A DNA stretch of 46,161 nt. Origin: a virus. Each line of letters opens with the position of its first letter. The first letter of the stretch is position 1. Both the position numbers and the translations under genes were made by a program. This document shows, in pieces, positions 10,758 to 45,927 of this stretch. The DNA is taken from positions 1-46,161 of IMG/VR virus record IMGVR_UViG_3300038701_001842; one strand, given 5' to 3'. The notes beneath the pieces were generated by a model, which was given only the letters and a program-made list of their open reading frames with translations, searched no databases and was not told the DNA's origin.

Positions 10758-11071
10758 TGGTCATCCTCCGCTGGCTCGTAGGTCGCCTCGAAGATGTCGG
10801 GCTTGCACGGGTAGATCTCGCCCTGGACGCCTCGGATGATCCAGTCGCCCTGGCGGGCAAGCATGAGCCCTTCGAGTGTCGGAATGTGCAGGCCCAGGGT
10901 GTCTGACGTCCAACCCTCAGGGAGAGCCTCCCCGTCGTCGCCGATGTAGCAGCCCTGAGGCTTGCCACCTTTGAGTTCGCCGACGTCGGCCAGTTCACAG
11001 ACGTCGTTCCAATTCCCCCATCGAAGCTGAACCGCTTCGATCACTACGGGCTTCTTGCGGTACTTCGGCAT
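10754..11071 (-). CDS. 105-residue conserved-type phage protein (YRKKPVVIEA...GDWII)
   Basis: The start at 11071 gives MPKYRKKPVVIEAVQL, the usual N terminus of a widespread group of small phage proteins. An in-frame ATG at 11083 lies in the purine-rich leader. The C-terminal half has GDWIIRGVQGEIYPCKPDIF, characteristic of the same group, whose function is unknown. The leader holds AAGGATGGA just upstream and six tandem 9-base repeats (11085-11138). Confidence 0.75.
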   Translation of the reverse strand: MPKYRKKPVVIEAVQLRWGNWNDVCELADVGELKGGKPQGCYIGDDGEALPEGWTSDTLGLHIPTLEGLMLARQGDWIIRGVQGEIYPCKPDIFEATYEPAEDDQ

Positions 11072-11084
11072 CTTCTTCTCCATC

Positions 11085-11138
11085 CTTGTCGGTCTTGTAG
11101 GTCTTGTCGGTCTTGTAGGTCTTGTCGGTCTGGTAGGT
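11085..11138. repeat. Six tandem 9-bp repeats in a gene leader
   Basis: Units alternate CTTGTCGGT and CTTGTAGGT on the plus strand, with one substitution in the last unit. They fill the gap between the exonuclease stop and the start of the 105-residue gene. On the transcribed strand they read as a purine/AC-rich, unstructured leader (ACCTACAAG/ACCGACAAG) that runs into GACAAGGATGGA. This could be a translation enhancer or a protein-binding array. Confidence 0.85.
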
Positions 11139-11141
11139 CTT

Positions 11142-12107
11142 CTAGATTTCCCGCACGTCAATCGACGTGGTTTCACTCGCCGGGCCCCGGAACCCTTCCA
11201 GGTCCTCGACGCCCAGTTCTTCAGCTATCGCAGCCTCGTCCAGCTTCCCTTTGCGGCTGGTCTTCTTCAACGCCACCTTCCAGCGCATCCCGCGTGCCTC
11301 GTCACGGTCACCCAGCACTTCCAGTAGCTTGTCGCGCGCCGTGTCCTTGTCCTTCTTGGCATCGCGCTCCAGGTCTCTGGCTTTCGCGTAGATCTGGGAC
11401 CACTTCTCGATGTCGTCGTCGATGTCGCCCAACTCGACCTCCCCCACCTCGTGGGTGTAGTACCAAGGGCACGGGTAGGCCGGCGGGGTCGGGCACTCGG
11501 GGACTGTCCCCGAGTCGATGAGGGCCAGCAGTTCCCCGGCCTTCTCGTACATCTCACCTAGCCCGATCAGTGGTTCGAGGCACCATTCGATGACGATCTC
11601 ACGGTCCCAGTCCAAGACGTGGGGGTTGTCGGGGTCCTTCTCACACACAACCCAGACGCCCGGCATCCCGAGCGCCATCATGTAGACACTCATCTGCCAC
11701 GCGTACGCCCCCCCATGCACCCAGCCTTTCTCGCGTCGCCACACGGCCATCATGTCGGGGGACGCGGATTTCGCATCCACGACGACAGGTCGCGACCCCA
11801 GGCTCCCGGTGTCGGTCGCCACGTCGTCGATGTGGCCGACGAGGTGGAACCGTCCCGGGATGAGCTCCAAGGTGACCTGCTCCTGGCTGCGGGACAGCTT
11901 CCAGCCCATCGCCTCCATGCGCGCCTCGATCTGCGGTTCGAGGGCGTGGCCGGCGTCGAACGCGGCCTGGAGGCGGTCGGGTGGTGGCTTGGCCCGGTTG
12001 CCGAGAGCCGAGTTGGCGAGTTGACAGAGAGGCTTCGACCAGGCTGACGCGCGGACGGTTACCAGTCCGGTGTCGGGGTCGACGGTGCAGGGGGGGCGGT
12101 CGCTCAT
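11142..12107 (-). CDS. PD-(D/E)XK exonuclease (RecB/Cas4/YqaJ-like)
   Basis: The product is 321 residues from the ATG at 12107. The nuclease core is visible in order: E57 in GHALEPQIE, D94 in GHIDDV, D111-A-K113 in VVVDAKSAS, and Q138 in AYAWQMSVYMMA. These match the RecB-family PD-(D/E)XK motifs I-IV found in phage exonucleases. Helical, highly charged C-terminal segments follow. It probably resects double-stranded ends for annealing by the Sak4-like system. It lies downstream of the 291-residue gene and is coupled to a 66-residue membrane protein gene. Confidence 0.85.
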   Translation of the reverse strand: MSDRPPCTVDPDTGLVTVRASAWSKPLCQLANSALGNRAKPPPDRLQAAFDAGHALEPQIEARMEAMGWKLSRSQEQVTLELIPGRFHLVGHIDDVATDTGSLGSRPVVVDAKSASPDMMAVWRREKGWVHGGAYAWQMSVYMMALGMPGVWVVCEKDPDNPHVLDWDREIVIEWCLEPLIGLGEMYEKAGELLALIDSGTVPECPTPPAYPCPWYYTHEVGEVELGDIDDDIEKWSQIYAKARDLERDAKKDKDTARDKLLEVLGDRDEARGMRWKVALKKTSRKGKLDEAAIAEELGVEDLEGFRGPASETTSIDVREI

Positions 12108-12304
12108 GGGGAGATGACCACCTCGCAGGAGTCGACGACATCGTGGGTGCAGACCCAGATGACGTCGTCGATGGACCAGGCGGTGTCGGGGTCGTCGCCC
12201 GCGTGGTATCCGAGGGCGTATCCCCCGAGGCCGGCGGTGATGATGAGAATGACAGCGATTGTGCCTGATACCCAGTTGACGTACTGGTCCACCATGTCGC
12301 TCAT
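12104..12304 (-). CDS. 66-residue single-span membrane protein
   Basis: The product is MSDMVDQYVNWVSG followed by one membrane helix (IAVILIITAGLGGYALGY) and an acidic domain with two cysteines. ATGA overlaps exist on both sides. Its position between recombination genes is unexplained. Function is unknown. Confidence 0.6.
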   Translation of the reverse strand: MSDMVDQYVNWVSGTIAVILIITAGLGGYALGYHAGDDPDTAWSIDDVIWVCTHDVVDSCEVVISP

Positions 12305-12681
12305 CTCCCCTCCCCCAGGTACATCGCGTACAGCTTCGCCATGCCGTCCTGTCTGCCACCGGTCCGGTAGTCGAACTCGGCGGCATCGGGTCGGCGCCTC
12401 AGCGACGAGTACAGGTTCGACACCTGACTCTCGGTCCCTCTGGCGATGATCGCCGGACTGCCCGGCTTCTCCCTCAGCCTGTCGAGCGTCTTGTCCCATG
12501 ACCGGACCGGCCGGCGTGGCCCTTTCAGCTTCGCCGGGTCCTTGCGGTTGCGGGCACTGACGTTCGACAGTTCGGGGAGTTCGGCCACCCACGAGAGTCG
12601 ACGATCCATTGTCGACGCCCGCGGGTAGCTCTTCTTGCGGGGGATTCGTTTCCCCCGGTCGATCCTGTGGCTGGTTCCCAT
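12301..12681 (-). CDS. 126-residue basic protein, unknown
   Basis: The ATG at 12681 is 11 bases after the upstream stop. The N-terminal two thirds are strongly basic (GKRIPRKKSYPRAS, GPRRPVRSWDKTLDRLREK). The C-terminal third, TESQVSNLYSSLRRRPDAAEFDYRTGGRQDG, resembles a nucleic-acid-binding helix pair. A DNA-binding early protein is plausible, but no family was matched. Confidence 0.55.
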   Translation of the reverse strand: MGTSHRIDRGKRIPRKKSYPRASTMDRRLSWVAELPELSNVSARNRKDPAKLKGPRRPVRSWDKTLDRLREKPGSPAIIARGTESQVSNLYSSLRRRPDAAEFDYRTGGRQDGMAKLYAMYLGEGR

Positions 12682-12692
12682 GTCGGGGCCGT

Positions 12693-13568
12693 TCAGCTGG
12701 CGGTGACGACGTCGCGCAGTGCCCACGCCCCACCGTTCTGGTCGGTGACCTTGCCCAGGACGTCGGTGCCGGCCGACGCGACCTTCGGGGTGACGGCGTT
12801 GAGGAACGTGACGAAGTCGTCGGAGGAGACGAGGGCTTCGCGGACGGCTGCAACGACGGCGGTGTCGGCGCCGTTGAAGAGGGCGTCGAGAGCGTCGCCG
12901 CCTGCTGCGGGGCCGTCACCGGTGATCGCGGCGACCGTGGCCGCCTGGCCTGCCGCTGCCGCGGGGGTCGCTGCCGCCGCGCCCTGGGCCTCGAAGCCGA
13001 GGAACTTCACCGGCAGGGACTTGACGTAGACGATCTCCTTGCCTTCCTTGTCGGTGCCGCCCTGGAAGCGGACGCGGCGCCAGTTGAACCGGCAGCCGAC
13101 GAGGAAGCGGGCGTCGCGGGCGTCGAGAGGGTTGCCGGCCTCGTCGATCGCGTCGATGGCGCCGGTCATGTCGGTGACGGGCGCCTCGTCAGTGTCGACC
13201 TGGGTGGAGGTCTTGCCGTAGCCTTCGAGGCGGCCGGTGAGGGTGTCGACGATCATCCCAAGGTTCGTCATCGCGTGGATCTTCTTGTTGCCGCCGTCGG
13301 GGTGGGAGATGGTGACCCGGTCCTCGGTGAACCAGCCGTTGCCAACGGACAGGGTGTGGTCGATGCCTCCGGAGGCTTCGATCTCCTCCTCGACGAACGG
13401 CGGCATCGGGGTGGCCTCCTCGACGCTGTTCACCTTGAGGAGGGTGTGGAGGAAGACGCGGTCGTTGGCGCCTTCGCGGGGGGCGAACCACGCGTCGATG
13501 ACGGTGGCGTCCATGTCGAGCCCCTCGAAGGAACCCGACTCAGTCTGCAGTGCTGATCGGTCACTCAT
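12693..13568 (-). CDS. 291-residue early protein, candidate DNA-binding/recombination partner
   Basis: The start at 13568 gives MSDRSALQTESGSFEG. The first 190 residues are beta-rich with acidic loops (ITSHPDGG-like turns, RFNWRRVRFQGGTDKEGKEIVY). An Ala-rich linker (near 195-225) and a helical C-terminal domain ending WALRDVVTAS follow. It has its own strong promoter and an unstructured AC-rich leader with ACAAGGA, suggesting high expression. High expression and location beside the exonuclease and ATPase suggest a single-strand DNA-binding or annealing role. This is inference, and no family was recognised. Confidence 0.6.
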   Translation of the reverse strand: MSDRSALQTESGSFEGLDMDATVIDAWFAPREGANDRVFLHTLLKVNSVEEATPMPPFVEEEIEASGGIDHTLSVGNGWFTEDRVTISHPDGGNKKIHAMTNLGMIVDTLTGRLEGYGKTSTQVDTDEAPVTDMTGAIDAIDEAGNPLDARDARFLVGCRFNWRRVRFQGGTDKEGKEIVYVKSLPVKFLGFEAQGAAAATPAAAAGQAATVAAITGDGPAAGGDALDALFNGADTAVVAAVREALVSSDDFVTFLNAVTPKVASAGTDVLGKVTDQNGGAWALRDVVTAS

Positions 13569-13608
13569 CTTTGTTGTGTCCTTGTTGTTGTTGGTTGTTG
13601 GGTTGGGA

Positions 13609-13624
13609 GGGTCATTGTTGACCC
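13609..13624. other. Small hairpin overlapping the promoter of the 291-residue gene
   Basis: GGGTCA-TTGT-TGACCC forms a perfect six-base inverted repeat with a four-base loop. It overlaps the -10 region of the leftward promoter, so it may be an operator; as RNA it would only be a short stem. Confidence 0.5.
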
Positions 13625-13642
13625 TGGGTTTGTTGTTGTCAA
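13614..13642 (-). promoter_or_regulatory. Leftward promoter for the 291-residue gene
   Basis: On the minus strand TTGACA (13642-13637) is followed, 17 bases later, by AACAAT (13619-13614). The transcript would start near 13607 and carry an AC-rich leader with almost no G or T before ACAAGGA. The -35 overlaps the stop codon of the upstream 69-residue gene. Confidence 0.6.
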
Positions 13643-13848
13643 GTGGGGAGTTGAGATTGGATCGTCGACCGGAGGAAGCTGGCCTCCAGGTGCATCTGGG
13701 CCAGCAACTCCACCGAGACGGAAACCAGTCCTGTCTCGATCGCGTCATCCGGCAAGTTGACACCAATCGCTTCCAGGTACCGGCAGGCCATCTCGGTTGT
13801 CAACGGAGGGATGTAGGGTCGGTCAGGTGTCGGGTCCGGTAGGGTCAT
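13639..13848 (-). CDS. 69-residue early protein, unknown
   Basis: The product starts MTLPDPTPDRPYIPPLTTEM and is followed by a helix pair (ACRYLEAIGVNLPDDAIETG, then VELLAQMHLEASFL). A GAGG ribosome-binding site lies just upstream. It is the last gene before an internal promoter. Function is unknown. Confidence 0.6.
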   Translation of the reverse strand: MTLPDPTPDRPYIPPLTTEMACRYLEAIGVNLPDDAIETGLVSVSVELLAQMHLEASFLRSTIQSQLPT

Positions 13849-13855
13849 CGTCGCC

Positions 13856-15553
13856 TCACAGGTATGGCCTCACGTCGACCTCCCAGTCCACCGCGTCCAT
13901 CCACCACCGCGGCATCACGGCCCGGTACCTGGACAGCAACTCTTGGAACTGGGTGTCCACCACGTACGTCTCGCACCAGTCATCGTCAGCCCGCACCCCG
14001 CGCCCGGTCATCTGGACCATCGCGCGCAGGGCCTGCAAGCTGTACCAACTCTGCCCATTCCTGGTCCGACGCATCCGGGCGTTCACCTGCTTGTCCCCGA
14101 GGTACGGATACGGGATCTTGGCGATGATCTGCACCCGGCAGTCGTCATCTGGCAGGTCCACACCCCGGTCCATCGACGCGGCGACCAGCACCGACCCTTC
14201 GGTCGCCAGATACCCCTCCAGGGCCATGTCCTTGTCCTTGGCGGCCAGGTAGCTGTACACGGGCCGGCCGAGTTTCCCCAGCCCCTTCACCATGTCCTTC
14301 GCGAGGTGGTAGCTGACGGTGTGGATCAGGACCCGCTCACCGGGGTGGTCGAGGATGATCTTCTTCGTCGCCTTGAGGATCTTCGGGACGGCCTCGTCTT
14401 TCGTCTTCGCGGTCAAGCTGGCGACCGGGACGTACCGGATGCGGCGGTTCTCGACGGGGAACGTCATCGGTACGTCAACGAGGGCGAACCCGCCGCGTGG
14501 GATCCCGAGGCTCTCGGCCATTTCGTCGGCCGACAGGACTGAGCCTGACATGAGTAGAAACCTCTGTCCGTGGCGCCAGAGGAGATCGTTGGCGAACCTT
14601 CCGACCATGATCGGCTTGAACGTCGCCGCGCCACGGTCATAGTCGGTGAGCACCCACTGTGTCGGGTCCTCGGCGAGCTCGTTGGCGACCCTGACGATGC
14701 TGGCCTTGAGACGCTGGAGGCTCTGGCGGGCCCGCAGTTCCCTCGTGGTGCCCTCATCCACCTCGGGCAGGTCCCAGAGCGCGCGTTCCAGGGCGGGGAT
14801 GACGTCGTCTCTCAGCCACGGTTCCCATGCGCCTTCCACTGTCCTCTTCGGCAACTCCAGCCCCAGTTCTTTCATCCATCTCGGGCTGATCGTGACAGAG
14901 ACGTGTGACAGTAGCTCCCCTTCAAGCATGTCGGCCTCGTCGAGAGTGACCAGGCCCCGGTTCGTGAACGTCTCCGGCCCGTTCCACGCGGTCAGGGCGT
15001 AGGTGGTGTTGAGGACGGCAATCGGGGAACCCAGTGCCACCCTCCTGGCGACCCGGTACGGGCAAGAGGCGGACTCGGCACACCAGCGGCAGTTATCCTC
15101 GCGGCCCGTCTTCGTGCAGTCGGCAGCTGTGACGTCGCGCATCTTCGACTGGGTCGGATAGTTGGCTCGGCCCTTGAGCACCGCGGCGTCGGGGAAGTCG
15201 CGCAGGAACTGGTCCTGAAGGTGTTTCGTCGTGCACGCGTAGATCCCTGAGACGCTGGTGCCGGCGACGTTGGGGAGCCAACGCCGCACCATCTCGCCGA
15301 TGAGGGTCTTGCCGGTCCCGGTCGGGGCCTGGAGGATGACGATCTTCGTAGACTTGAACGCCTCGACGATCTGGTTGACGGCGTCGATCTGGTGGGGCCG
15401 GAACGAGGTCACCCAGGACGGAAACTCGGGGTGCCAGCGTTCGTCGGCCGGGGACGCGGGGATGGCGACGGGGGAGCGGAGTCTGCGGCCGCGTTCGAGG
15501 AGGGCCGCGGCCGCGGAGGTCAAGCCGGGGGGTGGGGTGAGATTGTCGGTCAT
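13856..15553 (-). CDS. XPD/DinG-like superfamily 2 helicase with iron-sulfur cysteines
   Basis: The product is 565 residues. Walker A is APTGTGKT (76-83) and the DEAD box is at 205-208. Motif V/VI-like sequences are AASMDRGVDLP and QMTGRGVRADDD near the C terminus. Between motifs I and II lie four cysteines, C146, C155, C158 and C164 (NCRWCAESASCPY), spaced as in the 4Fe-4S domain of XPD/DinG helicases. It should unwind DNA 5' to 3'. It probably serves recombination, repair or replication restart in a phage that encodes no DNA polymerase. The start overlaps the upstream stop (ATGA). Confidence 0.85.
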   Translation of the reverse strand: MTDNLTPPPGLTSAAAALLERGRRLRSPVAIPASPADERWHPEFPSWVTSFRPHQIDAVNQIVEAFKSTKIVILQAPTGTGKTLIGEMVRRWLPNVAGTSVSGIYACTTKHLQDQFLRDFPDAAVLKGRANYPTQSKMRDVTAADCTKTGREDNCRWCAESASCPYRVARRVALGSPIAVLNTTYALTAWNGPETFTNRGLVTLDEADMLEGELLSHVSVTISPRWMKELGLELPKRTVEGAWEPWLRDDVIPALERALWDLPEVDEGTTRELRARQSLQRLKASIVRVANELAEDPTQWVLTDYDRGAATFKPIMVGRFANDLLWRHGQRFLLMSGSVLSADEMAESLGIPRGGFALVDVPMTFPVENRRIRYVPVASLTAKTKDEAVPKILKATKKIILDHPGERVLIHTVSYHLAKDMVKGLGKLGRPVYSYLAAKDKDMALEGYLATEGSVLVAASMDRGVDLPDDDCRVQIIAKIPYPYLGDKQVNARMRRTRNGQSWYSLQALRAMVQMTGRGVRADDDWCETYVVDTQFQELLSRYRAVMPRWWMDAVDWEVDVRPYL

Positions 15554-16362
15554 TGGGGCACCTCGTCACCCTCATTCCACAGCACCGCCATATCCGGTCC
15601 GCCATGTAGCCTCCATTGGCGGCCGTCAAACGACGGCACCAGACCCCGACACCAGAGATCTACGGCGGACTGAAACGGGTAGGCCCCAGGATCATGGTCG
15701 ATGTAGGACCACGAGGTGATGCCGGGGAACAGCGACCCGATGTAAGCCCAGACACTGGCCCTGACACTGCCCCCGACACTGTCCCAGACACTGGCCCTGA
15801 CACTGTCTCTGACTCTGCCCCCGACACCGTCCCCGACACTGTCCCAGATACTGTCCCAGATACTGTCCCAGACACCGTCCCAGACACCGTCCCTGACACT
15901 GGCCCAGATACTGTCCCAGACACCGTCCCTGACACTGGCCCAGATACTGTCCCATTGTCGGCACAGGTCAATTGCCTCAGCGTCAATGACGGGGACAATA
16001 GTCCTCGGGTTGAACGGGTCGCATGCCTCCGTGTACTTGAATCCCAGCAACTCGTCCATCCCATAGCGGGCCACCACCCGCACGGATGTCAGTTTCCGGA
16101 ACCCGGCTTTGCGAGGATGGCCGTTGATGTCGGTGACACGTCTGCCTGACACCTCAACCAATGTCGCGTATCGCAGTGGCCCGTGATGCCAGCCGAGGGC
16201 GTCGAGCGGCGTCGGTGACGCGTGCAACACAGCATCACTGCACGTCTCGGCGGGGCGTAGCCTCGGCCCGCCCGTGATCTCGTTCACGGTTCCTGGCGTC
16301 CACAGGGTCGCCTGGTCGTGGAACGAGCGAAGGTTGAAGGTTACGGCTTTCCAGTAGGTCAT
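15550..16362 (-). CDS. Protein with 17 tandem W-D-S-V-type tetrapeptides
   Basis: The product is 270 residues from the ATG at 16362, behind AGGATGGA-type leader motifs. Residues about 1-136 form a globular domain (LGWHHGPLRYATLVEVSGR, then FKYTEACDPFNPRTI). Residues about 137-204 are 17 tandem tetrapeptides of the form [W/R/G][D/A/G][S/G][V/I]. A C-terminal domain rich in Trp and Asp follows (TSWSYIDHDPGAYPF). The repeat comes from a 12-base DNA unit. Similar SVWDSV-type tracts occur in uncharacterised phage proteins; their role is unknown. The protein is coupled to the downstream helicase gene. Confidence 0.75.
   Translation of the reverse strand: MTYWKAVTFNLRSFHDQATLWTPGTVNEITGGPRLRPAETCSDAVLHASPTPLDALGWHHGPLRYATLVEVSGRRVTDINGHPRKAGFRKLTSVRVVARYGMDELLGFKYTEACDPFNPRTIVPVIDAEAIDLCRQWDSIWASVRDGVWDSIWASVRDGVWDGVWDSIWDSIWDSVGDGVGGRVRDSVRASVWDSVGGSVRASVWAYIGSLFPGITSWSYIDHDPGAYPFQSAVDLWCRGLVPSFDGRQWRLHGGPDMAVLWNEGDEVPQ
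15751..15954. repeat. 17 tandem 12-bp units inside a coding region
   Basis: Units such as GACACTGTCCCA and GATACTGTCCCA follow head to tail without interruption, differing at a few positions. Because the period is a multiple of three, several reading frames on both strands stay open across it. Only the minus frame with conserved flanks is the gene. Copy number could vary by slippage. Confidence 0.95.
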
Positions 16363-16384
16363 CGGTCGTCCATCCAGTCCATCC

Positions 16385-16735
16385 TCATTGGTTTTTGTTG
16401 AGTTTGTCGGCGTAGAACCCTGAGACCTTCTCCATCTCATCTTTCGCCTTGACGCAGTCGGCTCTGTATTTCACCAGTTGAGCCTTGTGTTCTTCCTCGT
16501 TCCCAGGCCTCCACAGGGGGATTCGCGGGTAGTGCATCCGAAGAATCTCAAGTGTCCGGTCGCGGCTCTCGACGTCTTGTTGCGTCAACGCCCGCCACTT
16601 CCATCCGCATGTCGGGCAGGTGCATCGGAGGATGTCGGCATCAGGGTCGTAGACGACTCCGGTGGCGTCCGACCCGCACTTCGGGCAGAACAGTCGTTGC
16701 GGGATCCCGGTTGTCCGGGAGGTTCGAGGCTTCAT
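16385..16735 (-). CDS. 116-residue zinc-ribbon protein
   Basis: The start at 16735 is placed seven bases after AAGGA of a GACAAGGATGGA leader; an upstream in-frame ATG lies within that motif. Residues 17-45 read CPKCGSDATGVVYDPDADIL and then CPTCGWKW, a four-cysteine zinc ribbon. A charged helical C-terminal half follows (EEEHKAQLVKYRADCVKAKD). It may bind nucleic acid or RNA polymerase; there is no closer match. Confidence 0.7.
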   Translation of the reverse strand: MKPRTSRTTGIPQRLFCPKCGSDATGVVYDPDADILRCTCPTCGWKWRALTQQDVESRDRTLEILRMHYPRIPLWRPGNEEEHKAQLVKYRADCVKAKDEMEKVSGFYADKLNKNQ

Positions 16736-16779
16736 CGGTCCATCCTTGTCCATCCTCAGTCGGTCAGCAGTCGGATGTC

Positions 16780-16809
16780 AGCATCCCACTGTCTTTGTCG
16801 TTCGTCAAG
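16780..16809 (-). promoter_or_regulatory. Leftward promoter, copy A of a repeated element
   Basis: On the minus strand TTGACG (16808-16803) is followed after 17 bases by GATGCT (16785-16780). The 23-base block 16787-16809 recurs at 17088-17110 with one mismatch, each time upstream of a gene with the GACAAGGATGGA leader. It would drive the zinc-ribbon gene and the helicase operon below it. Confidence 0.5.
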
Positions 16810-16830
16810 CAGGTCCCTGCCCTTGGGGGA

Positions 16831-17040
16831 TTATCGCGCGTCCCCGAAGGCTTCGACAAACTTCACATCGTGACATTTGATGCATTGCATTTCAACAGAT
16901 GTCACTCCGAACAAGATCCGACTCAGCATTTTGATTTCGATGCTGTCGACACTCATCCGGGAGGGATTCAGTGGTGGGGTGTGGTGGCGCCGGACTTCTT
17001 CCCATGAATGTACGCACTTCTTACTAATTCTCATCTTCAT
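16831..17040 (-). CDS. 69-residue AT-richer zinc-finger-like protein
   Basis: The product begins MKMRISKKCVHSWEEV and later has MQCIKCHDVKF, giving a C-x-H-x-W ... C-x-x-C pattern common in tiny phage zinc proteins. AAGGATGGA directly precedes the ATG. The gene is clearly richer in A and T than its neighbours and uses codons rare elsewhere in the window (ATT, AGT, AAG-rich runs), suggesting separate acquisition. It stands alone between two copies of the repeated promoter. Confidence 0.65.
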   Translation of the reverse strand: MKMRISKKCVHSWEEVRRHHTPPLNPSRMSVDSIEIKMLSRILFGVTSVEMQCIKCHDVKFVEAFGDAR

Positions 17041-17080
17041 TCCATCCTTGTCGATCAGCCAACAACATCAGTATTTATCT

Positions 17081-17110
17081 AGTGTCTCACTATCTTTGTC
17101 GTTCGTCAAG
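17081..17110 (-). promoter_or_regulatory. Leftward promoter, copy B of a repeated element
   Basis: On the minus strand TTGACG (17109-17104) is followed after 17 bases by GACACT (17086-17081). The core 17088-17110 matches 16787-16809 at 22 of 23 bases. A 40-base AT-richer leader and GACAAGGATGGA lead to the ATG at 17040. Confidence 0.5.
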
Positions 17111-17122
17111 TCATCCGAGTCG

Positions 17123-17662
17123 TCAATGATCCTCGGTCGGCCCAGCCACTCTCTCCCACCGTTCCACCATCGCCCTGGCCCGCTGTTGCAACGCCCCCGG
17201 CATCGCCGCCACCTGATCCTTGACGTTCTGCAAGGTCTCCAGCAGGTGTGCCATGTCGCCGATCTCCGAGGCATTCACGCACGCCTTCTCGGCCTCATTC
17301 AGATACTCCCGCTGCGCTTCCAGTTCATCGTTCCTCGCCCGCATCTGACTGAGCCGCATCATTATCCCGAGGGTCTGGCCGATCCCGTCGGCCATCCCGT
17401 TGTCGTCGAGGTACTTCAGCCGGTGGAAGCACGCGTCGCGGAAGAACGCCTGCTGGGAGTCGTAGTCGGGGATCTTGCCCTGCTGGACGAGTCTCTGCAC
17501 CGCCGCGTACACCGGCAACGGGATCCTCACGTTCACCCGGATCGCGTTGCCGTCCTTGTCGGAGGTGGCCGTGTAGAACTTGTCGGGCGAGTAGCCGCCG
17601 TCGTCGGTGTTGAGGCCGGTGCGGGGCTGGCGGGGGATGTCTGGCACGGGTCGTAGGGCCAT
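17123..17662 (-). CDS. Ribbon-helix-helix-like DNA-binding protein with helical tail
   Basis: The product is 179 residues, preceded by GACAAGGATGGA. After a 40-residue extended N terminus, residues 41-85 read IRVNVRIPLPVYAAVQRLV followed by DSQQAFFRDACFHRLKYL, a likely ribbon-helix-helix fold. The rest is helical and charged, possibly a coiled-coil oligomerisation domain. It could be an early repressor or DNA organiser. Confidence 0.65.
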   Translation of the reverse strand: MALRPVPDIPRQPRTGLNTDDGGYSPDKFYTATSDKDGNAIRVNVRIPLPVYAAVQRLVQQGKIPDYDSQQAFFRDACFHRLKYLDDNGMADGIGQTLGIMMRLSQMRARNDELEAQREYLNEAEKACVNASEIGDMAHLLETLQNVKDQVAAMPGALQQRARAMVERWERVAGPTEDH

Positions 17663-17772
17663 CAGTCGGTATCCATCCTTGTCACCTCATCGTCTCATCG
17701 GTCGTGTCCGGTGCGTCATTGGACTACCCAGTTTGTCACACCTGCCGACCCCCCCGCCACCCTGCCACCCTG
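17663..17772. other. 110-bp gap without a gene
   Basis: It holds the GACAAGGATGGA leader of the 17123-17662 gene (about 17672-17683) and a C-rich stretch next to the preceding stop. A GTGACA-like -35 is present on the minus strand, but no convincing -10 follows. No other signal was seen. Confidence 0.5.
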
Positions 17773-18057
17773 CTAGACCCCCTTCGCGTACTCTCTGCGT
17801 TCCTCACGCGTCGGGCTGGCCTTCAGCTTCACCCTCGACCGTTTCGCGAACCGGGTCAGCTTCAACGAGATGGTCGGCTGGGACTTGCCGACCAGCCTGG
17901 CGATGTCGGACACGGACAGGTACGGGTCGTCGTTGAGGTATTCGATCGCGAGCCGGCAGAACTCGTCGTTCGCTTCGCTCATCAGCCGGTGATGTTCGGT
18001 GATGCGGTCGTGGACGGACTGCAGGTGTGTGATCTGGGCGGGCGTCATGGAACTCAT
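17773..18057 (-). CDS. Helix-turn-helix DNA-binding protein
   Basis: The product is 94 residues from the ATG at 18057, in an ATGA overlap with the methyltransferase stop. Residues 50-72 read LSVSDIARLVGKSQPTISLK, a clear helix-turn-helix of the homeodomain-like/resolvase type. A basic tail follows (RFAKRSRVKLKASPTREERR). It may regulate the methyltransferase operon, a common arrangement for control proteins; this is inference. Confidence 0.75.
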   Translation of the reverse strand: MSSMTPAQITHLQSVHDRITEHHRLMSEANDEFCRLAIEYLNDDPYLSVSDIARLVGKSQPTISLKLTRFAKRSRVKLKASPTREERREYAKGV

Positions 18058-18971
18058 CGTCGGTGATTCCTTTCGACTGCCACGATCCGTCGGCCGATCC
18101 ATTCGGCGACGTTGACGGTGACCGCGTTGCCCAACTGGCGGTACCGGTGGGTGTCGGCCTGGCCGTTGTCGGTCCAGTGGTCGGGGAAGCCCTGGAGGCG
18201 TTCGCATTCGAGGGGGGTGAGGCATCGCGCCCCTTGCCCGCCGGCCATCACTACGGCGGCACGGTTCTCACCGGTCAACGTGTCGGCTAGTTCGTATCTG
18301 GCGGTAACTTTGCGGCGACGGGAATCAAACCCGATAGCAGCCCAGGGACGATAGTGGCTATCGGCCGTGTCGCCCGGTCCAGCACTCCCGCCGCGGCCTT
18401 CGGACTCAGAAAGTACTTCCCAGCCACCTCCCCGGTCTCCAAGACATCCGACAATGAACACTCGACGGCGTCGCTGGGGGACTCCGAAGTATCGACTGTC
18501 CAGTACCCGCCATCCCACGCCATACCCGAGGTCGGCCAGCGTCCCGACGACGGTTGCCATGTCTGCGCCCCGGTTGGAGGACAAGAGCCCGGGGACGTTC
18601 TCGATGACGACCCACCGGGGTCCGAGTTCGTCGATGATCCTCGCGTATTCGTACCAGAGTCCTGACCTGTCACCTGACAATCCTTTCCTGTCCTTGTGTT
18701 TCGAGTTCGCCAACGAGATGTCCTGGCAGGGGAACCCGCCACAGAGAATGTCGACGGGGGGAGGTGGCGACGTGGGGGTGATCGTGGTGACGTCGCCGAG
18801 GTTCGGGACCCGCGGCCAGTGGCCTGCCAGCACCGCCGATGCCTTGTCGTCCACTTCGGCCTGCCAGGCGACTTGCATCCCGGCACGCTCGAATCCGAGG
18901 TCGAAACCTCCGATGCCGGTGAACAGGCTGCCGACGCGTAGTTCATATTCAGTCAGACCGTGTTCCGTCAT
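18054..18971 (-). CDS. DNA (cytosine-5) methyltransferase
   Basis: The product is 305 residues from the ATG at 18971. All core C5-methyltransferase motifs are present. Motif I is SLFTGIGGFDLGFERAG (15-31); motif IV is GGFPCQDIS with catalytic C82. Motif VI is ENV (124-126) and motif VIII is QRRRR (166-170). Motif IX is LTPLECERLQGFPDHWT (251-267) and motif X is RQLGNAVTV (278-286). The target-recognition region (about 175-245) is short, so specificity cannot be read. No restriction enzyme is nearby, so it probably protects phage DNA from host restriction. It is coupled to genes on both sides. Confidence 0.95.
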   Translation of the reverse strand: MTEHGLTEYELRVGSLFTGIGGFDLGFERAGMQVAWQAEVDDKASAVLAGHWPRVPNLGDVTTITPTSPPPPVDILCGGFPCQDISLANSKHKDRKGLSGDRSGLWYEYARIIDELGPRWVVIENVPGLLSSNRGADMATVVGTLADLGYGVGWRVLDSRYFGVPQRRRRVFIVGCLGDRGGGWEVLSESEGRGGSAGPGDTADSHYRPWAAIGFDSRRRKVTARYELADTLTGENRAAVVMAGGQGARCLTPLECERLQGFPDHWTDNGQADTHRYRQLGNAVTVNVAEWIGRRIVAVERNHRR

Positions 18972-19249
18972 GTCCTCCCCTTCCCCAGTTCCCCGATCCA
19001 CAGCCAGCCCCCGCCACTCGCCTCGTCGTTCGTCCGCCGGCACCATCTCAACTCCGCGGCCACCTCGATGGCGCGTGTGGCGACCGGGATACCCACCCGG
19101 GCGAAGGTGGCGACCTGGGTCGCCGAAAACGCGACCCTGCCGCCGGACAGTTGCGCTACGTATCTAGCCGCGTGGACGACCTCGGCGGGGAGCTCGTCGG
19201 CCAGGGAGGCTAGTTGCTCACCGACTTTCTTCGGTCCTGGGCGTGCCAT
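18968..19249 (-). CDS. 93-residue winged-helix-like protein
   Basis: The product has a helical N terminus (ELPAEVVHAARYVAQLSGG) and a possible helix-turn-helix (FSATQVATFARVGIPVATRA). A Trp-rich wing (GGGWLWIGEL) follows. ATGA overlaps exist on both sides. The gene is flanked by short direct repeats (TTCAGTCAGACCG at 18948 and 19276), so it may be an inserted cassette. No family was recognised. Confidence 0.6.
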   Translation of the reverse strand: MARPGPKKVGEQLASLADELPAEVVHAARYVAQLSGGRVAFSATQVATFARVGIPVATRAIEVAAELRWCRRTNDEASGGGWLWIGELGKGRT

Positions 19250-19467
19250 CAGTCGCCACCTCCGCGCAGTACGGATTCAGTCAGACCGTATTCAGTCAGA
19301 CGACTTTGGGTCGCGGGCGCGGGCGCGGGCGCGGGGGCGGGTGGGCTGCCCGGGTCACCGCCAGGGTCCCCGCTCCGGTCCTCATCGCACCATCGGCACG
19401 TCTCCGGCGCGTCGAAGTGCGCGCCAGGGTCACACCTCCAGCACGGTCCTTCGCCGGCGCCGGTCAC
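19249..19467 (-). CDS. 72-residue Cys- and Pro-Ala-rich protein
   Basis: The GTG start at 19467 forms a GTGA overlap with the upstream stop; a GTG at 19506 would overlap by 42 bases. CWRC and CRWC pairs at the N terminus could hold zinc. A Pro-Ala linker (PPAPAPAPAPA) follows. The tail SRLTEYGLTES is encoded by a duplicated 15-base sequence that also encodes the methyltransferase N terminus. Confidence 0.5.
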   Translation of the reverse strand: MTGAGEGPCWRCDPGAHFDAPETCRWCDEDRSGDPGGDPGSPPAPAPAPAPATQSRLTEYGLTESVLRGGGD

Positions 19468-19649
19468 GGGCCCGTCTCGATCGGTGGCGGACACTGGCCC
19501 TGACACGTCTCCACGGGTCGGTCCTGCCAGTCACCGAGGTCGGGCCGCGCCCCGTTGATCCCGAGCGCGATGATGAGGAGGAGGGCCGTCCAGGCCACCG
19601 CGACCAGGACGCCCTGCCAGAATCGCGGGATGATCAGCGGGCGCGTCAT
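19464..19649 (-). CDS. 61-residue single-span membrane protein
   Basis: The ATG at 19649 lies in an ATGA overlap. Residues 10-33 (FWQGVLVAVAWTALLLIIAL) form one membrane helix with a basic N terminus, so the C terminus probably faces outward. The short tail has two cysteines (CQGQC). Function is unknown. Confidence 0.6.
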   Translation of the reverse strand: MTRPLIIPRFWQGVLVAVAWTALLLIIALGINGARPDLGDWQDRPVETCQGQCPPPIETGP

Positions 19650-19804
19650 GGCCGCCACGTCCTGACAATCACCTCGGCGCCCATCAGTGCACGTTTCCGG
19701 CGCGTGAGCCGGGGATCTTGACCAGGCCGGCCGACAGTCTTGCGCGTCGCGAGCTCTACCGCGTCGAGTTCTACGCGTAGGAACGTCAACGCGTGCCGGG
19801 CCAT
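19646..19804 (-). CDS. 52-residue basic early protein
   Basis: A 53-codon frame exactly fills the gap between its neighbours with ATGA overlaps at both ends. The product starts MARHALTFLRVELDAVELAT and ends basic (RLTRRKRALMGAEVIVRTW). No family was recognised. The perfect coupling is the main evidence. Confidence 0.6.
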   Translation of the reverse strand: MARHALTFLRVELDAVELATRKTVGRPGQDPRLTRRKRALMGAEVIVRTWRP

Positions 19805-20187
19805 CATGTCCGCGTCTCCGCGTGCGGGTCGAGGTCTTCCAGCGCGGCTATCTGCGCGGCGACCGTATCAGGGTCCTCGCCTGTGAGCCCGAACGCCTGG
19901 CGCCTCTGGGCGATCGTGAGGCGTTCATAGAGCTCTGGCATGGCGTCGGCGCGGCGTTCATCCTGCGCGGCGACACCGGCTCCGAACCCATCATCTCGAC
20001 CCGCGTCGTATCCGTCGTCGTAGCGCTTCGCGGCGTAGTCGAGTGCTAGGGCCTCGCACTCGTCGATCGCCGCTAGTAGTCCACCGACTGCCGCGGCGTA
20101 CCCTGGCGCGTCTTCCAGCCTGGCCGCGGCGTCGCGTAGTTGCTGCCACGCGCGCCGGTCACTGTCACGTTTCCATTGTGTTGCCAT
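19804..20187 (-). CDS. 127-residue helical early protein
   Basis: The product begins MATQWKRDSDRRAWQQLRDA and is mainly helical, with an acidic Gly/Asp stretch (YDDGYDAGRDDGFGAG). The leader contains AAGGATGGGAG, with GGGAG eight bases before the ATG. It is the first gene after structured element 1 (20215-20276). Function is unknown. Confidence 0.65.
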   Translation of the reverse strand: MATQWKRDSDRRAWQQLRDAAARLEDAPGYAAAVGGLLAAIDECEALALDYAAKRYDDGYDAGRDDGFGAGVAAQDERRADAMPELYERLTIAQRRQAFGLTGEDPDTVAAQIAALEDLDPHAETRT

Positions 20188-20214
20188 GTCCTAGTCTCCC
20201 ATCCTTGCTGCTGG

Positions 20215-20276
20215 CACCGGTCGGTACCGGGAACCCCTACCACTCTTGCGGTAGGGGGACCCGCTAGCTACCGGTG
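20215..20276 (-). ncRNA. Structured intergenic element, copy 1
   Basis: An outer stem of seven pairs (CACCGGT 20215-20221 with ACCGGTG 20270-20276) encloses a middle stem (CGGG 20228-20231 with CCCG 20260-20263). A 2x2 internal loop leads to an inner stem of eight pairs (CCCCTACC 20234-20241 with GGTAGGGG 20250-20257) and an eight-base loop. A diverged copy at 21299-21357 keeps the pairing. It lies between the stop of the 193-residue gene and the leader of the 127-residue gene. It could be a leader switch, processing site or terminator (there is no U tract). Confidence 0.6.
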
Positions 20277-20286
20277 GAGTCCCTAC

Positions 20287-20868
20287 CTACCTCACCTCCG
20301 ATCCGGCCCAGCTTGCAAGCTCTCCACACGCGTACTCCCAGCCGATGAATCCCCAACAACTGTCGCCAATGTCGAGCCGCCCGCCGATGGACCCTTCCAC
20401 GGGCACAAGCTCCACGACTCCGTACACCTCGCCGCGCATCCATGCTCCGCACTCAGTCAGGAACCCAGCGACCGCGGCGTCGGGATCGGTCCAGTCGTCG
20501 TCCAGTGTCAGGACATGGGTCGCGTATCCGATCCGGTCTCCGTCGCTGTCAGGGTCGGGAACGTCGGCCCGGTACGCGTAGGGCTGGGTTCCGCCGCCGA
20601 TCATCAGTGGATACTGTCGCGGTTCTAGGTCATTCCAGTCGAGTGGTCCGCCCCGGCCCCGATTGAGTTCGGTCAGGGTCCAGCCTTCCAGGTCGGCTGG
20701 GTCGACGTGCTGACTATCCATGTCATCGGCCAGATAGACCCATCTACCGTCGCCGCAGTCCACTATCTCCCCGACCGGTTCCGGTACCGGACTGGCGATG
20801 TCGAGTCGGACACCTTCATCAGTCATCAGGTGGTAGTTCGTCGTCGTTGTGATCGTGGGCGCGTTCAT
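20287..20868 (-). CDS. 193-residue acidic early protein, unknown
   Basis: The product begins MNAPTITTTTNYHLMTDEGV and is very acidic, with VPDPDSDGDRIGYATHVL and TLDDDWTDPDAAVAGFL. The acidic, elongated character recalls DNA-mimic anti-restriction proteins, but no family motif was seen, so this is only a guess. A GAGGATGGG motif precedes the ATG, which overlaps the upstream stop. Confidence 0.65.
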   Translation of the reverse strand: MNAPTITTTTNYHLMTDEGVRLDIASPVPEPVGEIVDCGDGRWVYLADDMDSQHVDPADLEGWTLTELNRGRGGPLDWNDLEPRQYPLMIGGGTQPYAYRADVPDPDSDGDRIGYATHVLTLDDDWTDPDAAVAGFLTECGAWMRGEVYGVVELVPVEGSIGGRLDIGDSCWGFIGWEYACGELASWAGSEVR

Positions 20869-21263
20869 CGGGACCCATCCTCGGCCATGTCCAGTAGCGT
20901 CCAGACCAGCCGCGACGCGATCAGGTAGAGACAGACGCCGGCTTGTGCGCCCATGTCACTGTCCCCCGTCCCGAGCTCTTCCGGGTCTTCCTGCCACGCG
21001 GCCAGGTCCACGAATTCCTGCCACCTTTGGTACGTGTAGATGTTCGGGGCCCTATCGGCCAGTTCGTGAGCTATGTCGCCTTCGCGGATGTCGTCCACCG
21101 TCTCGTCTTTGAGTGCTTCCACCACCGCGTCCCGAACGTTCATGAGCATCCGCGCCCCGGGACTTTCGAGAGTGTCCGGAGTGCCACAGTCGGCCATGTT
21201 GGCCAGTTGATATGCGTTCAACGCGGCGAGTTCCCTTACCGCGTCCCGTGTCGTTGTGTCCAT
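20865..21263 (-). CDS. 132-residue acidic early protein, unknown
   Basis: The start at 21263 gives MDTTTRDAVRELAALNAYQL. The product is helical and acidic, with one hydrophobic segment near the C terminus (GVCLYLIASRLVWTLLDMAE). AGGGATGGACCG precedes the ATG, and the first codons (ATGGACACAACG) match the start of the 21350-21763 gene. It is the first gene after structured element 2. Confidence 0.65.
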   Translation of the reverse strand: MDTTTRDAVRELAALNAYQLANMADCGTPDTLESPGARMLMNVRDAVVEALKDETVDDIREGDIAHELADRAPNIYTYQRWQEFVDLAAWQEDPEELGTGDSDMGAQAGVCLYLIASRLVWTLLDMAEDGSR

Positions 21264-21298
21264 CGGTCCATCCCTACTAGTCGTCTTCAGTCCATCGG

Positions 21299-21357
21299 CA
21301 CCGGTCGGCACCGCGAAACCCACCACCTAGGCGATGGGCAACGCGCTGACTACCGGC
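21299..21357 (-). ncRNA. Structured intergenic element, copy 2
   Basis: This is homologous to 20215-20276 (shared CACCGGTCGG-ACCG-GAA flank). The outer stem CCGGT/ACCGG (21301-21305 with 21352-21356) includes the upstream stop codon. The middle stem is CGCG/CGCG (21312-21315 with 21342-21345) where copy 1 has CGGG/CCCG, a compensated change. The inner stem (21319-21338) pairs best as minus-strand RNA, CCCAUCGC with GUGGUGGG including G-U pairs. This indicates that the leftward transcript is the folded molecule. Confidence 0.55.
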
Positions 21358-21763
21358 AGACCTGGCGATCCCTACCGGCCCGGATGTCGCGGGCCCGGGC
21401 CGACATCTCATCGGACAACCTGACCCCCATGGACCGCGCCGGGTCCCCGTGGGGATGCATCCGGGCTTGTGTGAGGACCTCGGCGGCGATCGCATCCGCG
21501 TGGTCTGCACTCTCGGCGACGGTTGGCCGTGTCGGGCCCCAGTGTCGGAACCGTGACCGGAACGTGTCGCTGTGGTGGTCGAGCGCTTCGGCGCGGCTCT
21601 CCCATCGGCCCAGTGTCGTGGAGTGCACGCTTGCAACTGTGAGGGCGTCACCCCATCGGATCAGCGCGGATCGGCCGTCCCATGTCCAGCCAAGGACCTC
21701 GGCGCCATCGTACTGCGTCACGGTCCGCTCAATCGGGCTGGGTGCTGGTGTCGTTGTGTCCAT
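21350..21763 (-). CDS. 137-residue early protein, unknown
   Basis: The product starts MDTTTPAPSPIERTVTQYDG. The N-terminal half looks beta-rich (VLGWTWDGRSALIRWGDALT) and the C-terminal half helical and basic. The start region, ATGGACACAACGAC, resembles that of the 20865-21263 gene, so the initiation signal has been duplicated. Function is unknown. Confidence 0.65.
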   Translation of the reverse strand: MDTTTPAPSPIERTVTQYDGAEVLGWTWDGRSALIRWGDALTVASVHSTTLGRWESRAEALDHHSDTFRSRFRHWGPTRPTVAESADHADAIAAEVLTQARMHPHGDPARSMGVRLSDEMSARARDIRAGRDRQVCR

Positions 21764-21766
21764 CGG

Positions 21767-22000
21767 TCAGATCCCCTCCGGTCGCGTCGTGGTGACGGTG
21801 TCGCGGCGATGCTTCGGCCCGGTCGTAATCCGCGGCGTCTTGTGGTGGCGGATGCGGCTCGGGGTCGGCCCGTCCAGATCCACGTCTGTGAAGCTGACCC
21901 CCCACTCGGTGTCGCACTCGGCGATGCAAGCCGCCCACGTACCGGCGTAGGCGCACCGCACGTAGTAGAGGACTTCGGTCCCCTCGGTCACTGTGTCCAT
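21767..22000 (-). CDS. 77-residue early protein, first gene of a leftward unit
   Basis: The start at 22000 gives MDTVTEGTEVLYYVRCAYAG, preceded by AAGGGATGGGAC. Two or three cysteines occur in a compact alpha/beta sequence (CIAECDTEWGVSF), followed by a basic tail. It is the first gene downstream of the promoter at 22048-22076, so it is probably made early and strongly. Function is unknown. Confidence 0.6.
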   Translation of the reverse strand: MDTVTEGTEVLYYVRCAYAGTWAACIAECDTEWGVSFTDVDLDGPTPSRIRHHKTPRITTGPKHRRDTVTTTRPEGI

Positions 22001-22017
22001 GTCCCATCCCTTCAGTC

Positions 22018-22047: not shown

Positions 22048-22076
22048 ACCTTATAGCACCTGCTATACCCCGTCAA
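22048..22076 (-). promoter_or_regulatory. Leftward early promoter with overlapping operator
   Basis: On the minus strand TTGACG (22076-22071) is followed after 17 bases by TAAGGT (22053-22048), with TATAAG as an alternative -10. The inverted repeat TATAGCA-CC-TGCTATA (22052-22067) lies between and over the promoter elements, where a dimeric repressor would block RNA polymerase. The ribbon-helix-helix proteins encoded upstream are candidate binders. Confidence 0.65.
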
Positions 22077-22761: not shown

Positions 22762-23135
22762 GGGGTGCCCTTCGCGTCGCTGGCCTCGTCGGCCCGGCCC
22801 ATCATCTCCAGGGCGTGGCCGAGATCCAGGACCCGCCCGCGCGCGCGTTCCTTCCGCTTCAACAGCTTCCACGACGCCTCCTCACCAGCCGCTTGCATCG
22901 CGTGGATCTCCTTCTCGCACCGGTCCACTTCGCTGTTCGCCTCGACCAGTTCACGCGCGACCCTCTCCTGGGCGGTCTCGACCCTGGCCTGCCAGTCCCT
23001 GCGCGCGTGGGCCTCATCCAGCCACAGCCGGATCCCTTCCCTGACGGCCTGGCTCCGGGACCTGTCCAGCACGGTGGCGGCGTGGTCGAGCTCGGCGAGC
23101 ATGTCGTCCTGTATGAAGAAGCTGATGGTAGGCAT
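22758..23135 (-). CDS. 125-residue ribbon-helix-helix protein with coiled coil
   Basis: Residues 1-42 read MPTISFFIQDDMLAELDHAA and SRSQAVREGIRLWLDEA, a CopG-like DNA-binding domain. Residues 50-110 form a charged coiled coil (ETAQERVARELVEANSEVDR). The ATG follows a -10 element by six bases, so the message is probably leaderless. It is the first gene of the leftward block and a candidate master early repressor. Confidence 0.8.
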   Translation of the reverse strand: MPTISFFIQDDMLAELDHAATVLDRSRSQAVREGIRLWLDEAHARRDWQARVETAQERVARELVEANSEVDRCEKEIHAMQAAGEEASWKLLKRKERARGRVLDLGHALEMMGRADEASDAKGTP

Positions 23136-23141
23136 GGAGCC

Positions 23142-23170
23142 ATGATGGGTTGGGGACCGGCCCCTGTCAA
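23142..23170 (-). promoter_or_regulatory. Leftward promoter giving a leaderless message
   Basis: On the minus strand TTGACA (23170-23165) is followed after 17 bases by CATCAT (23147-23142), then six bases and the ATG at 23135. Transcription would start at or beside the ATG. The spacer contains GGGG-CCGGT-CCCC, a possible operator. This would be the main early promoter. Confidence 0.6.
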
Positions 23171-23173
23171 CTG

Positions 23174-23310
23174 AAAGACCCCTCTAGCAGCTGAAAGACT
23201 GTCAGCTGTCAGCTAGCAACCTTACTAGCAGCTAGCAGCTAGCCCCCCCAGCTAGCACAGCACGCGCCAGCGCAGGATGAACTAGAAGACTGACAGCTAG
23301 CAACGCGCGC
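23174..23310. repeat. Cluster of AGCTAGCAG/CTGAAAGAC repeats (iteron-like)
   Basis: Short motifs recur many times: CTGAAAGAC twice, CAGCTAGCA and its variants at least five times, plus TCAGCTG and GACAGCTAGCAA. They lie between the divergent promoters and directly behind the leftward -35. Such arrays act as replication iterons or as multiple operators. Confidence 0.7.
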
Positions 23311-44286: not shown

Positions 44287-44580
44287 ATGGACCGCACCTG
44301 CAAACACGGCAACGACAGGGCTACATGCCCTGTCGACGAGTATCCGTGCAAGGTGTACGGCTTCAAGGTCAGCCCTTACGCGATGAGAACCCGCATGACA
44401 GGCAAGGCACCAGCGACACGCCCGCCCGTCGAGAACCGGGGCATCGTGACAGATGAGCGAGGACTGCCGATCCGCAAGGACGGCGGCAAGGTCATCTCCA
44501 CCAAGGAATGGTCCGAGAAGCCCAAGCTCCGGGAGCGATACGGCGCGTTGCGAAGAGGGCAGTCACCGACGGGAAGTTAG
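44287..44580 (+). CDS. 97-residue protein between scaffold and capsid
   Basis: The product starts MDRTCKHGNDRATCPVDEYP, with C5, H7, C14 and C21 as a possible zinc site. The rest is basic and Pro/Gly-rich (RGLPIRKDGGKVISTKEWSE). It lies in the capsid operon, so it may be a minor head protein or assembly factor. No family was recognised. Confidence 0.65.
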   Translation: MDRTCKHGNDRATCPVDEYPCKVYGFKVSPYAMRTRMTGKAPATRPPVENRGIVTDERGLPIRKDGGKVISTKEWSEKPKLRERYGALRRGQSPTGS

Positions 44581-45814: not shown

Positions 45815-45907
45815 TGCGGCGCCCATCCCGTCGCTCCTCAGTGGTGCTAGTCACACCACGACATCGGTCAGAGGCAAGACCCCCCGGCTACGGTCGGGGG
45901 GTCTTTC
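45815..45907 (+). ncRNA. Candidate small RNA between promoter and terminator
   Basis: The stretch from the predicted start (near 45815) to the terminator holds no gene with a ribosome-binding site. It would fold into two hairpins, GTGGTG/CACCAC (45841-45859) and the terminator stem. It could be a small phage RNA, or the leader of an attenuated transcript for 45940 onward. Confidence 0.4.
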
Positions 45908-45908
45908 T
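45876..45908 (+). terminator. Strong intrinsic terminator after the capsid gene
   Basis: AAGACCCCCCG (45876-45886) pairs perfectly with CGGGGGGTCTT (45895-45905) around an eight-base loop, followed by TCT. It would end the scaffold-capsid transcript. Confidence 0.85.
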
Positions 45909-45927
45909 CGTAGGGGCCCAGGTCGGG

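What the first reader, a model, noticed from the sequence alone, without database searches (positions are those of the whole stretch)
20215..21357. Two homologous structured intergenic RNA elements with compensatory changes
Elements at 20215-20276 and 21299-21357 share flanking sequence (CACCGGTCGG) and the same three-stem plan. The middle stem changes from CGGG/CCCG to CGCG/CGCG, and the inner stem differs in sequence yet still pairs. In copy 2 pairing needs G-U pairs that exist only in the leftward transcript. Each copy lies about 27-35 bases before the start of an early gene with an AGGATGG leader and directly after the stop of the preceding gene. This suggests a new phage RNA element for regulation, processing or termination.
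Basis: partly seen in the sequence, partly recalled or inferred. Interest (0 to 1): 0.62.

Follow-up and report, generated by a model that had tools for sequence, protein, structure and literature searches.

The report
Paired RNA hairpins between phage genes
An uncultured actinobacterial phage carries two related RNA hairpins just upstream of early genes; their sequences have drifted but every base pair is kept, so they probably act in the messenger RNA (most likely as a cutting or processing site), but only two copies are known and no experiment supports a function.

Summary
Two homologous ~62-nt elements (20215-20276 and 21299-21357, leftward strand) fold into one long irregular hairpin of 24 pairs. 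Between copies there are 9 substitutions in 46 paired positions and no broken pair (simulated P about 0.0005). Three pairs change on both sides and one pair is deleted from both arms. Copy 2 pairs fully only as leftward RNA (23/23 pairs against 18/23 on the other strand). Homology stops sharply at the element edges and is directional, so this is a discrete RNA module and not a DNA palindrome. There is no U-tract, Rfam match, third copy in the window, or relative found in IMG/VR, GTDB genomes or cultured phages. The virus has no close sequenced relative, so the proposed covariation test across genomes cannot be run. Copy 2 lies 35 nt before an Ocr-like antirestriction gene. In other phages that slot often holds an mRNA-cleaving element: type II hammerhead ribozymes in R4-like Streptomyces phages and in IMG/VR locus L100; in T7, RNase III site R0.3. 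I favour an intercistronic mRNA-processing hairpin of RNase III type (about 0.45). An RNA-binding-protein site or mRNA stabiliser are the main rivals. The kind is ordinary for phages; the sequence family is new.

The parts
20209..20281 (-). Copy 1: long interrupted RNA hairpin (core 20215-20276; 7 + 1 + 2 + 4 + 10 bp, AAGA loop)
   Evidence: fold z -4.1; CM hit 99.1 bits (model built from it); homology to copy 2
21293..21361 (-). Copy 2: homologous hairpin (core 21299-21357; same plan, inner stem one pair shorter, CUAG loop); its 5' arm contains the stop codon (21350-21352) of the upstream gene
   Evidence: fold z -3.1 on minus, -0.6 on plus; pair counts
20865..21263 (-). Gene directly downstream of copy 2: Ocr-like antirestriction protein family, phrog_4239
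   Evidence: PHROG E 9e-37; 43-47% identity to proteins annotated 'OCR-like antirestriction protein' in Streptomyces phages
21350..21763 (-). Gene directly upstream of copy 2, unknown function
   Evidence: ORF; no Pfam/PHROG match
20287..20868 (-). Gene directly upstream of copy 1, phrog_6186 (unknown function); overlaps the end of the Ocr-like gene
19804..20187 (-). Gene directly downstream of copy 1, unknown function
   Evidence: ORF, no family match
20199..20206 (-). AAGGATGG leader (Shine-Dalgarno-like) after copy 1, mostly unpaired
   Evidence: mean pairing probability 0.34
21268..21275 (-). AGGGATGG leader (Shine-Dalgarno-like) after copy 2, mostly unpaired
   Evidence: mean pairing probability 0.23
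22050..22076 (-). Possible promoter of the leftward early gene run (TTGACG, 15 nt, TATAAG) containing the 16-bp palindrome TATAGCAGGTGCTATA (22052-22067), a likely repressor operator
   Evidence: read from the sequence; not called by the consensus scan because of the short spacer; inference

Best explanation
The two elements are copies of one RNA hairpin module placed between co-transcribed leftward early genes. Shown: when transcribed leftward, each forms a continuous irregular helix of 23-24 pairs plus stacked mismatches (A.G, pyrimidine-C, G.G, a 2x2 U-rich loop) capped by a tetraloop. It sits just after (copy 1) or across (copy 2) the upstream stop codon and 27-35 nt before the next start codon, with the downstream ribosome-binding site left open. 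Inferred: at about two and a half helical turns it is cut by host RNase III, splitting the polycistronic early mRNA into separate units, giving the downstream message (for copy 2 the Ocr-like antirestriction gene) a defined 5' end and the upstream message a hairpin-protected 3' end. This is how T7 R sites work and is the counterpart of the self-cleaving hammerheads that occupy the same slot in other actinophages.
For: Structure kept through 9 substitutions and a paired deletion, only on the transcribed strand. Directional, sharply bounded homology with unrelated flanks. Between co-directional genes, no U-tract. Ribosome-binding site accessible. In phages carrying the homologous Ocr-like gene, the gaps around it hold Hammerhead_II ribozymes (R4 L094, Daudau L097, Spernnie L099; IMG/VR locus L100 has stop - 3 nt - hammerhead - 31 nt - ATG, the same layout as copies 1 and 2), or tRNA-elbow-like minihelices. 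In Rhodococcus phage ChewyVIII the gap after the Ocr-like gene holds an interrupted hairpin of 8 + 5 + 9 bp with 2x2 loops. T7 sites R0.3 to R1.3, folded here for comparison, lie in the same kind of slot, R0.3 directly before T7 ocr. Streptomyces RNase III (AbsB) cleaves mRNA in vitro (PMC2936110).
Against: No RNA data of any kind. Only two copies in one genome; other gaps in the same gene run lack it. T7 sites have a shorter perfect upper helix and usually an asymmetric internal loop, unlike the symmetric loops here. The strict conservation of 18 of 24 pairs and of the mismatches could equally mean a sequence-specific protein site or recent duplication. The host is unknown, and sequence cannot show RNase III cleavage.
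Confidence: 0.45

Rival explanations
1. RNA operator: the hairpin is the binding site of a phage or host RNA-binding protein that represses or activates translation of the downstream gene, or an antitermination signal read by RNA polymerase or a phage factor.
For: Sequence as well as structure is conserved (18 of 24 pairs identical; mismatches A.G, G.G and the 3' strand CGGU.CCGACCGGUGCC). Two copies before two different genes suggest a shared regulator.
Against: The ribosome-binding site and much of the start region lie outside the hairpin and are largely open, so a bound protein would not directly mask them. The four loop bases, a usual protein contact, all differ between copies. No candidate RNA-binding protein was identified.
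Confidence: 0.2
2. mRNA 3'-end stabiliser or barrier: the hairpin stays uncut and blocks exonucleases running in from the 3' side, protecting the upstream message.
For: Very stable hairpin directly behind, or across, the upstream stop codon.
Against: Copy 2 includes the stop codon, so terminating ribosomes would open its base. A barrier needs no particular mismatches or sequence, yet these are conserved.
Confidence: 0.15
3. Transcription terminator or attenuator without a U-tract that lowers expression of downstream genes.
For: GC-rich hairpin between genes; U-less terminators have been proposed for actinobacteria (own knowledge).
Against: No terminator-like site at either copy. The phage has apparently conventional terminators with a T run elsewhere, e.g. 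45841-45909(+) AAGACCCCCC...GGGGGGTCTTTC. Conservation of the distal 7-bp outer stem with mismatches is unnecessary for termination. Genes continue in the same direction 27-35 nt on.
Confidence: 0.1
4. No specific function: a recent duplication of a hairpin, or a DNA-level palindrome (protein site, recombination or origin sequence).
For: Only two copies, none in other genomes.
Against: Random drift would break about 5 pairs; none is broken. G-U pairs make the structure strand-specific (18/23 pairs on the other strand). The element does not resemble its own reverse complement in the other copy.
Confidence: 0.1

Closest known systems
RNase III processing sites of phage T7 early region (R0.3, R0.5, R1, R1.1, R1.3)
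   Same: Intercistronic hairpins 50-65 nt long in an early operon; R0.3 lies directly before the ocr gene, as copy 2 lies before an Ocr-like gene. Copy 1 shares an 11-nt apical string CGCAAGAGUGG with R1.1, which may be chance.
   Different: No recognisable homology otherwise. Longer, more GC-rich and with symmetric internal loops here; cleavage not shown.
Hammerhead_II ribozymes (Rfam RF02276) in R4-like Streptomyces phages
   Same: Same gene slot: after a stop, about 20-35 nt before the start of the Ocr-like gene and of other early genes; similar length. Hammerheads flanking an antirestriction gene (ardA) are reported for an Agrobacterium prophage region (PMC3088659).
   Different: The window elements lack the CUGAUGA/GAAA core and the three-way junction, and no Rfam match exists.
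SAS/ESAS elements of cluster K mycobacteriophages and cluster EF Microbacterium phages (PMC3203893, PMC7302621)
   Same: Intergenic inverted repeats upstream of a conserved start-associated sequence in non-structural genes; the window has an ARGGATGG start-associated motif before about seven leftward starts.
   Different: The authors of PMC3203893 found little support for mRNA hairpins in ESAS; here arm changes are compensatory. Sequences unrelated; only two copies, and most ARGGATGG sites have no hairpin.
Intergenic interrupted hairpins of Rhodococcus phage ChewyVIII (L093 44471-44557 and 46569-46644)
   Same: Same stem - 2x2 loop - stem plan (44471-44557), same position after the Ocr-like gene, followed by a shared start leader.
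   Different: No sequence homology detected; no relatives to test covariation.

Membership tests
Intercistronic RNase III site (T7 R type) | Hairpin with about 20 or more stacked pairs in the transcribed strand | tested here: met
   24 and 23 pairs, minus strand only for copy 2
Intercistronic RNase III site (T7 R type) | Located between co-transcribed cistrons | tested here: met
   Between same-strand genes after or over the stop, 27-35 nt before the next start; a shared transcript is inferred
Intercistronic RNase III site (T7 R type) | Internal loop positioned as in T7 R sites to direct cleavage | tested here: inconclusive
   A 2x2 U-rich internal loop lies below the 9-10 bp upper helix, but symmetric, unlike T7 sites
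Intercistronic RNase III site (T7 R type) | Cleavage by RNase III | not testable with these tools
   Needs in vitro cleavage or RNA-seq in an RNase III mutant
Hammerhead_II ribozyme (RF02276) | Conserved CUGAUGA / GAAA core at a three-way junction | tested here: not met
   No Rfam match at gathering or relaxed thresholds; single hairpin fold
Intrinsic terminator | GC-rich hairpin followed by a U-tract | tested here: not met
   No terminator-like site at either element; GCCAGCAGCAAGG and GCCGATGGACTG follow
SAS/ESAS of cluster K phages | 13-bp GGGATAGGAGCCC start-associated sequence with 17-bp inverted repeats | tested here: not met
   The window has a different motif (ARGGATGG) and unrelated repeats; definition from PMC3203893
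Any described Rfam family | Score above gathering threshold | tested here: not met
   0 matches in the window

The most novel reading that the evidence does not exclude
The hairpins are a new class of self-contained intergenic RNA device, perhaps a new self-cleaving ribozyme, that in this lineage has taken the slot held by hammerhead ribozymes before antirestriction genes in other actinophages; its conserved A.G, G.G and U-rich mismatches would be the active part.
Probability: 0.05. Interest if true: 0.75.

Novelty: new member of a known kind. Interest (0 to 1): 0.35.

Why it matters
If the processing reading is right, unrelated phages have filled the same slot, directly before an antirestriction gene and between other early genes, with different RNA devices: hammerheads, tRNA-like minihelices, and RNase III-type hairpins. 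That would suggest that cutting early mRNA there is selected in its own right, which is directly testable by RNA-end mapping in cultured Streptomyces phages.

Tried and rejected
Degenerate DNA patterns of the element in IMG/VR and GTDB genomes: four hits are one coding sequence without the fold, the 26 and the one show no fold by covariance model. Model R1 on 83 first-round loci: best hit L028 245-318, 24.7 bits, E 0.027 in 1.75 Mb, with broken outer-stem pairs, judged chance. R1 on 23 loci with an Ocr-like gene and on 12 whole virus records: nothing. Close relatives of the phage sought with the Ocr-like protein, helicase and terminase: none; nearest terminase 35%, nearest capsid 40%. No protein relative of the gene upstream of copy 1 in cultured phages. 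Ocr-like family in genome contigs: none confirmed. Considered and dropped: hammerhead or other known ribozyme (no Rfam match), intrinsic terminator (no U-tract), thermometer masking the ribosome-binding site (site largely open), DNA palindrome (strand asymmetry). An unselective hairpin scan of other loci was uninformative, because stable hairpins abound in GC-rich coding sequence. The 11-nt match to T7 R1.1 (fraction 0.003 of random windows score as high) was noticed after the fact and is not used as evidence.

Full report
Setting. The window is a complete IMG/VR record of 46161 bases from a GC-rich actinobacterial-type phage with no close relative: the terminase matches cultured phages at 25-28% over long alignments, IMG/VR at 35% at best, and the capsid at 40%. 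Genes from about 22.0 kb leftward run on the minus strand. Copy 2 lies between gene 21763-21350 and an Ocr-like gene 21263-20865 (phrog_4239; 43-47% identical to proteins annotated OCR-like in Streptomyces phages). Copy 1 lies between gene 20868-20287 and gene 20187-19804.

The observation. On the minus strand the copies read CACCGGU-A-G-C-UA-G-CGGG-UC-CCCCUACCGC-AAGA-GUGGUAGGGG-UU-CCCG-G-UA-C-C-G-ACCGGUG and (U)GCCGGU-A-G-U-CA-G-CGCG-UU-GCCCAUCGC-CUAG-GUGGUGGGU-UU-CGCG-G-UG-C-C-G-ACCGGUG. This is one long hairpin with stacked mismatches. Folding supports it on the minus strand in both copies, and on the plus strand only in copy 1. Of 24 pairs, 18 do not vary (one of these, U-A, is present only in copy 1 because copy 2 lacks both partners), 3 change on one side to G-U and 3 on both sides (U-A/C-G, G-C/C-G, C-G/G-U); no pair is broken. 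With 9 substitutions in 46 paired positions, random placement leaves all pairs intact in 0.05% of simulations. All four loop bases differ. On the complementary strand copy 2 would keep only 18 of 23 pairs. Homology ends at the element: flanks align no better than shuffles, and the element does not resemble the reverse complement of its partner. It is therefore a discrete, directional RNA module.

How rare it is. A covariance model finds only these two copies in the window; next best E is 0.2. It finds nothing convincing in 83 loci around related terminases and other phages, 23 loci around Ocr-like genes, or 12 whole virus records. Patterns over IMG/VR and GTDB genomes gave only chance hits. 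Rfam has no match. blastn against cultured phages gives only E 9 fragments. Absence of further copies does not refute the element, since no close relative is available.

What sits in this slot elsewhere. Following the Ocr-like gene into other actinophages shows a pattern. In R4, Daudau and Spernnie, the gaps between early genes, including the one just before the Ocr-like gene, hold type II hammerhead ribozymes above the Rfam threshold. An Itza gap before the Ocr-like gene has the same GGCGAAAC...CTGATGAG core by eye but was not called by the Rfam scans. IMG/VR locus L100 has a stop at 4859, a hammerhead at 4863-4930 and the Ocr-like ATG at 4962, nearly the layout of copies 1 and 2. In Danzina, Alsaber, phiScoe2 and IMG/VR relatives the gaps instead hold a covarying tRNA-elbow-like minihelix. 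ChewyVIII has an interrupted hairpin with 2x2 loops right after its Ocr-like gene. In T7, RNase III sites separate the early genes and R0.3 precedes ocr (site positions from own knowledge; sequences folded). Hammerheads flanking the antirestriction gene ardA are published (PMC3088659).

Mechanism. The whole helix is conserved, including the outer 7-bp stem; there is no U-tract; the ribosome-binding site is left mostly open; and the slot is one where phages elsewhere place RNA-cleaving elements. I conclude that the most likely role is intercistronic mRNA processing, by host RNase III, at about 0.45. Shown: structure, strand, homology, position. Inferred: co-transcription, cleavage, and the benefit to the antirestriction message. 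A protein-binding operator, an uncut stabiliser, an atypical terminator and non-functional duplication remain open in that order.

Leader. ARGGATGG occurs 10 times in the window against 2.4 expected, 9 times on the minus strand; eight pattern matches with a following ATG, at seven sites, were found on the minus strand and none on the plus strand. It is a start-associated motif of the phage in general and not part of the hairpin module, reminiscent of SAS motifs (PMC3203893).

Verdict. Real, RNA-level, with a new sequence but of a familiar kind; only two copies and no relatives limit how far it can be taken by computation.

Noticed in passing
L011, L095, L096, L111, L113, L115-L117, L102, L107, L109, L110 (Arquatrovirinae Streptomyces phages and IMG/VR relatives), e.g. 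L095 2888-2930, 3684, 4411, 5281: Multi-copy intergenic tRNA-elbow-like minihelix: 5-bp stem, 11-nt linker (ACCGGCAGACA or AGCGGCACACA), 6-bp stem, 7-nt loop UUCGAGN, closing strands, then ACU. 92 matches, about 60 distinct; both stems covary freely, the last loop base covaries with a linker base (A/U, G/C, C/G) and linker bases 2 and 8 covary. No tRNA call and no Rfam match; possibly an RNase P substrate or an undescribed RNA family.
   Followed up: partly
L094, L097, L098, L099, L100, L121, L122: R4-like Streptomyces phages and IMG/VR relatives carry many Hammerhead_II ribozymes (6-8 per 7 kb in L094, L097 and L099), about one per early intergenic gap; in sister genera such gaps hold the tRNA-like minihelix, suggesting functional replacement.
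   Followed up: partly
window 22050-22076 (-): Possible early promoter TTGACG-15-TATAAG overlapping a 16-bp palindrome TATAGCAGGTGCTATA (7-bp arms), a likely operator.
   Followed up: no
window 11069-22011 (-), seven sites: Start-associated motif ARGGATGG, 9 of 10 occurrences in the window on the minus strand; two sites continue as GGACCGATG into the start codon.
   Followed up: partly
window 21248-21268 and 21748-21768: Perfect 21-bp direct repeat GACCGATGGACACAACGACAC over the starts of two adjacent genes (both begin MDTTT).
   Followed up: no
window 15711-15990: Array of 12-bp repeats inside gene 15550-16440(-), encoding DSIWDS/VRDGVWD-like peptide repeats.
   Followed up: no
window 23130-23260: Cluster of GCTAGCTGCTAGCTGCTAG and CAGCTGACAG palindromic repeats in a non-coding stretch.
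   Followed up: no
L093 44471-44557 and 46569-46644 (ChewyVIII): Two interrupted hairpins between early genes, each followed by a shared leader (ACCACCGAA..GGAAACGACATGACA).
   Followed up: partly
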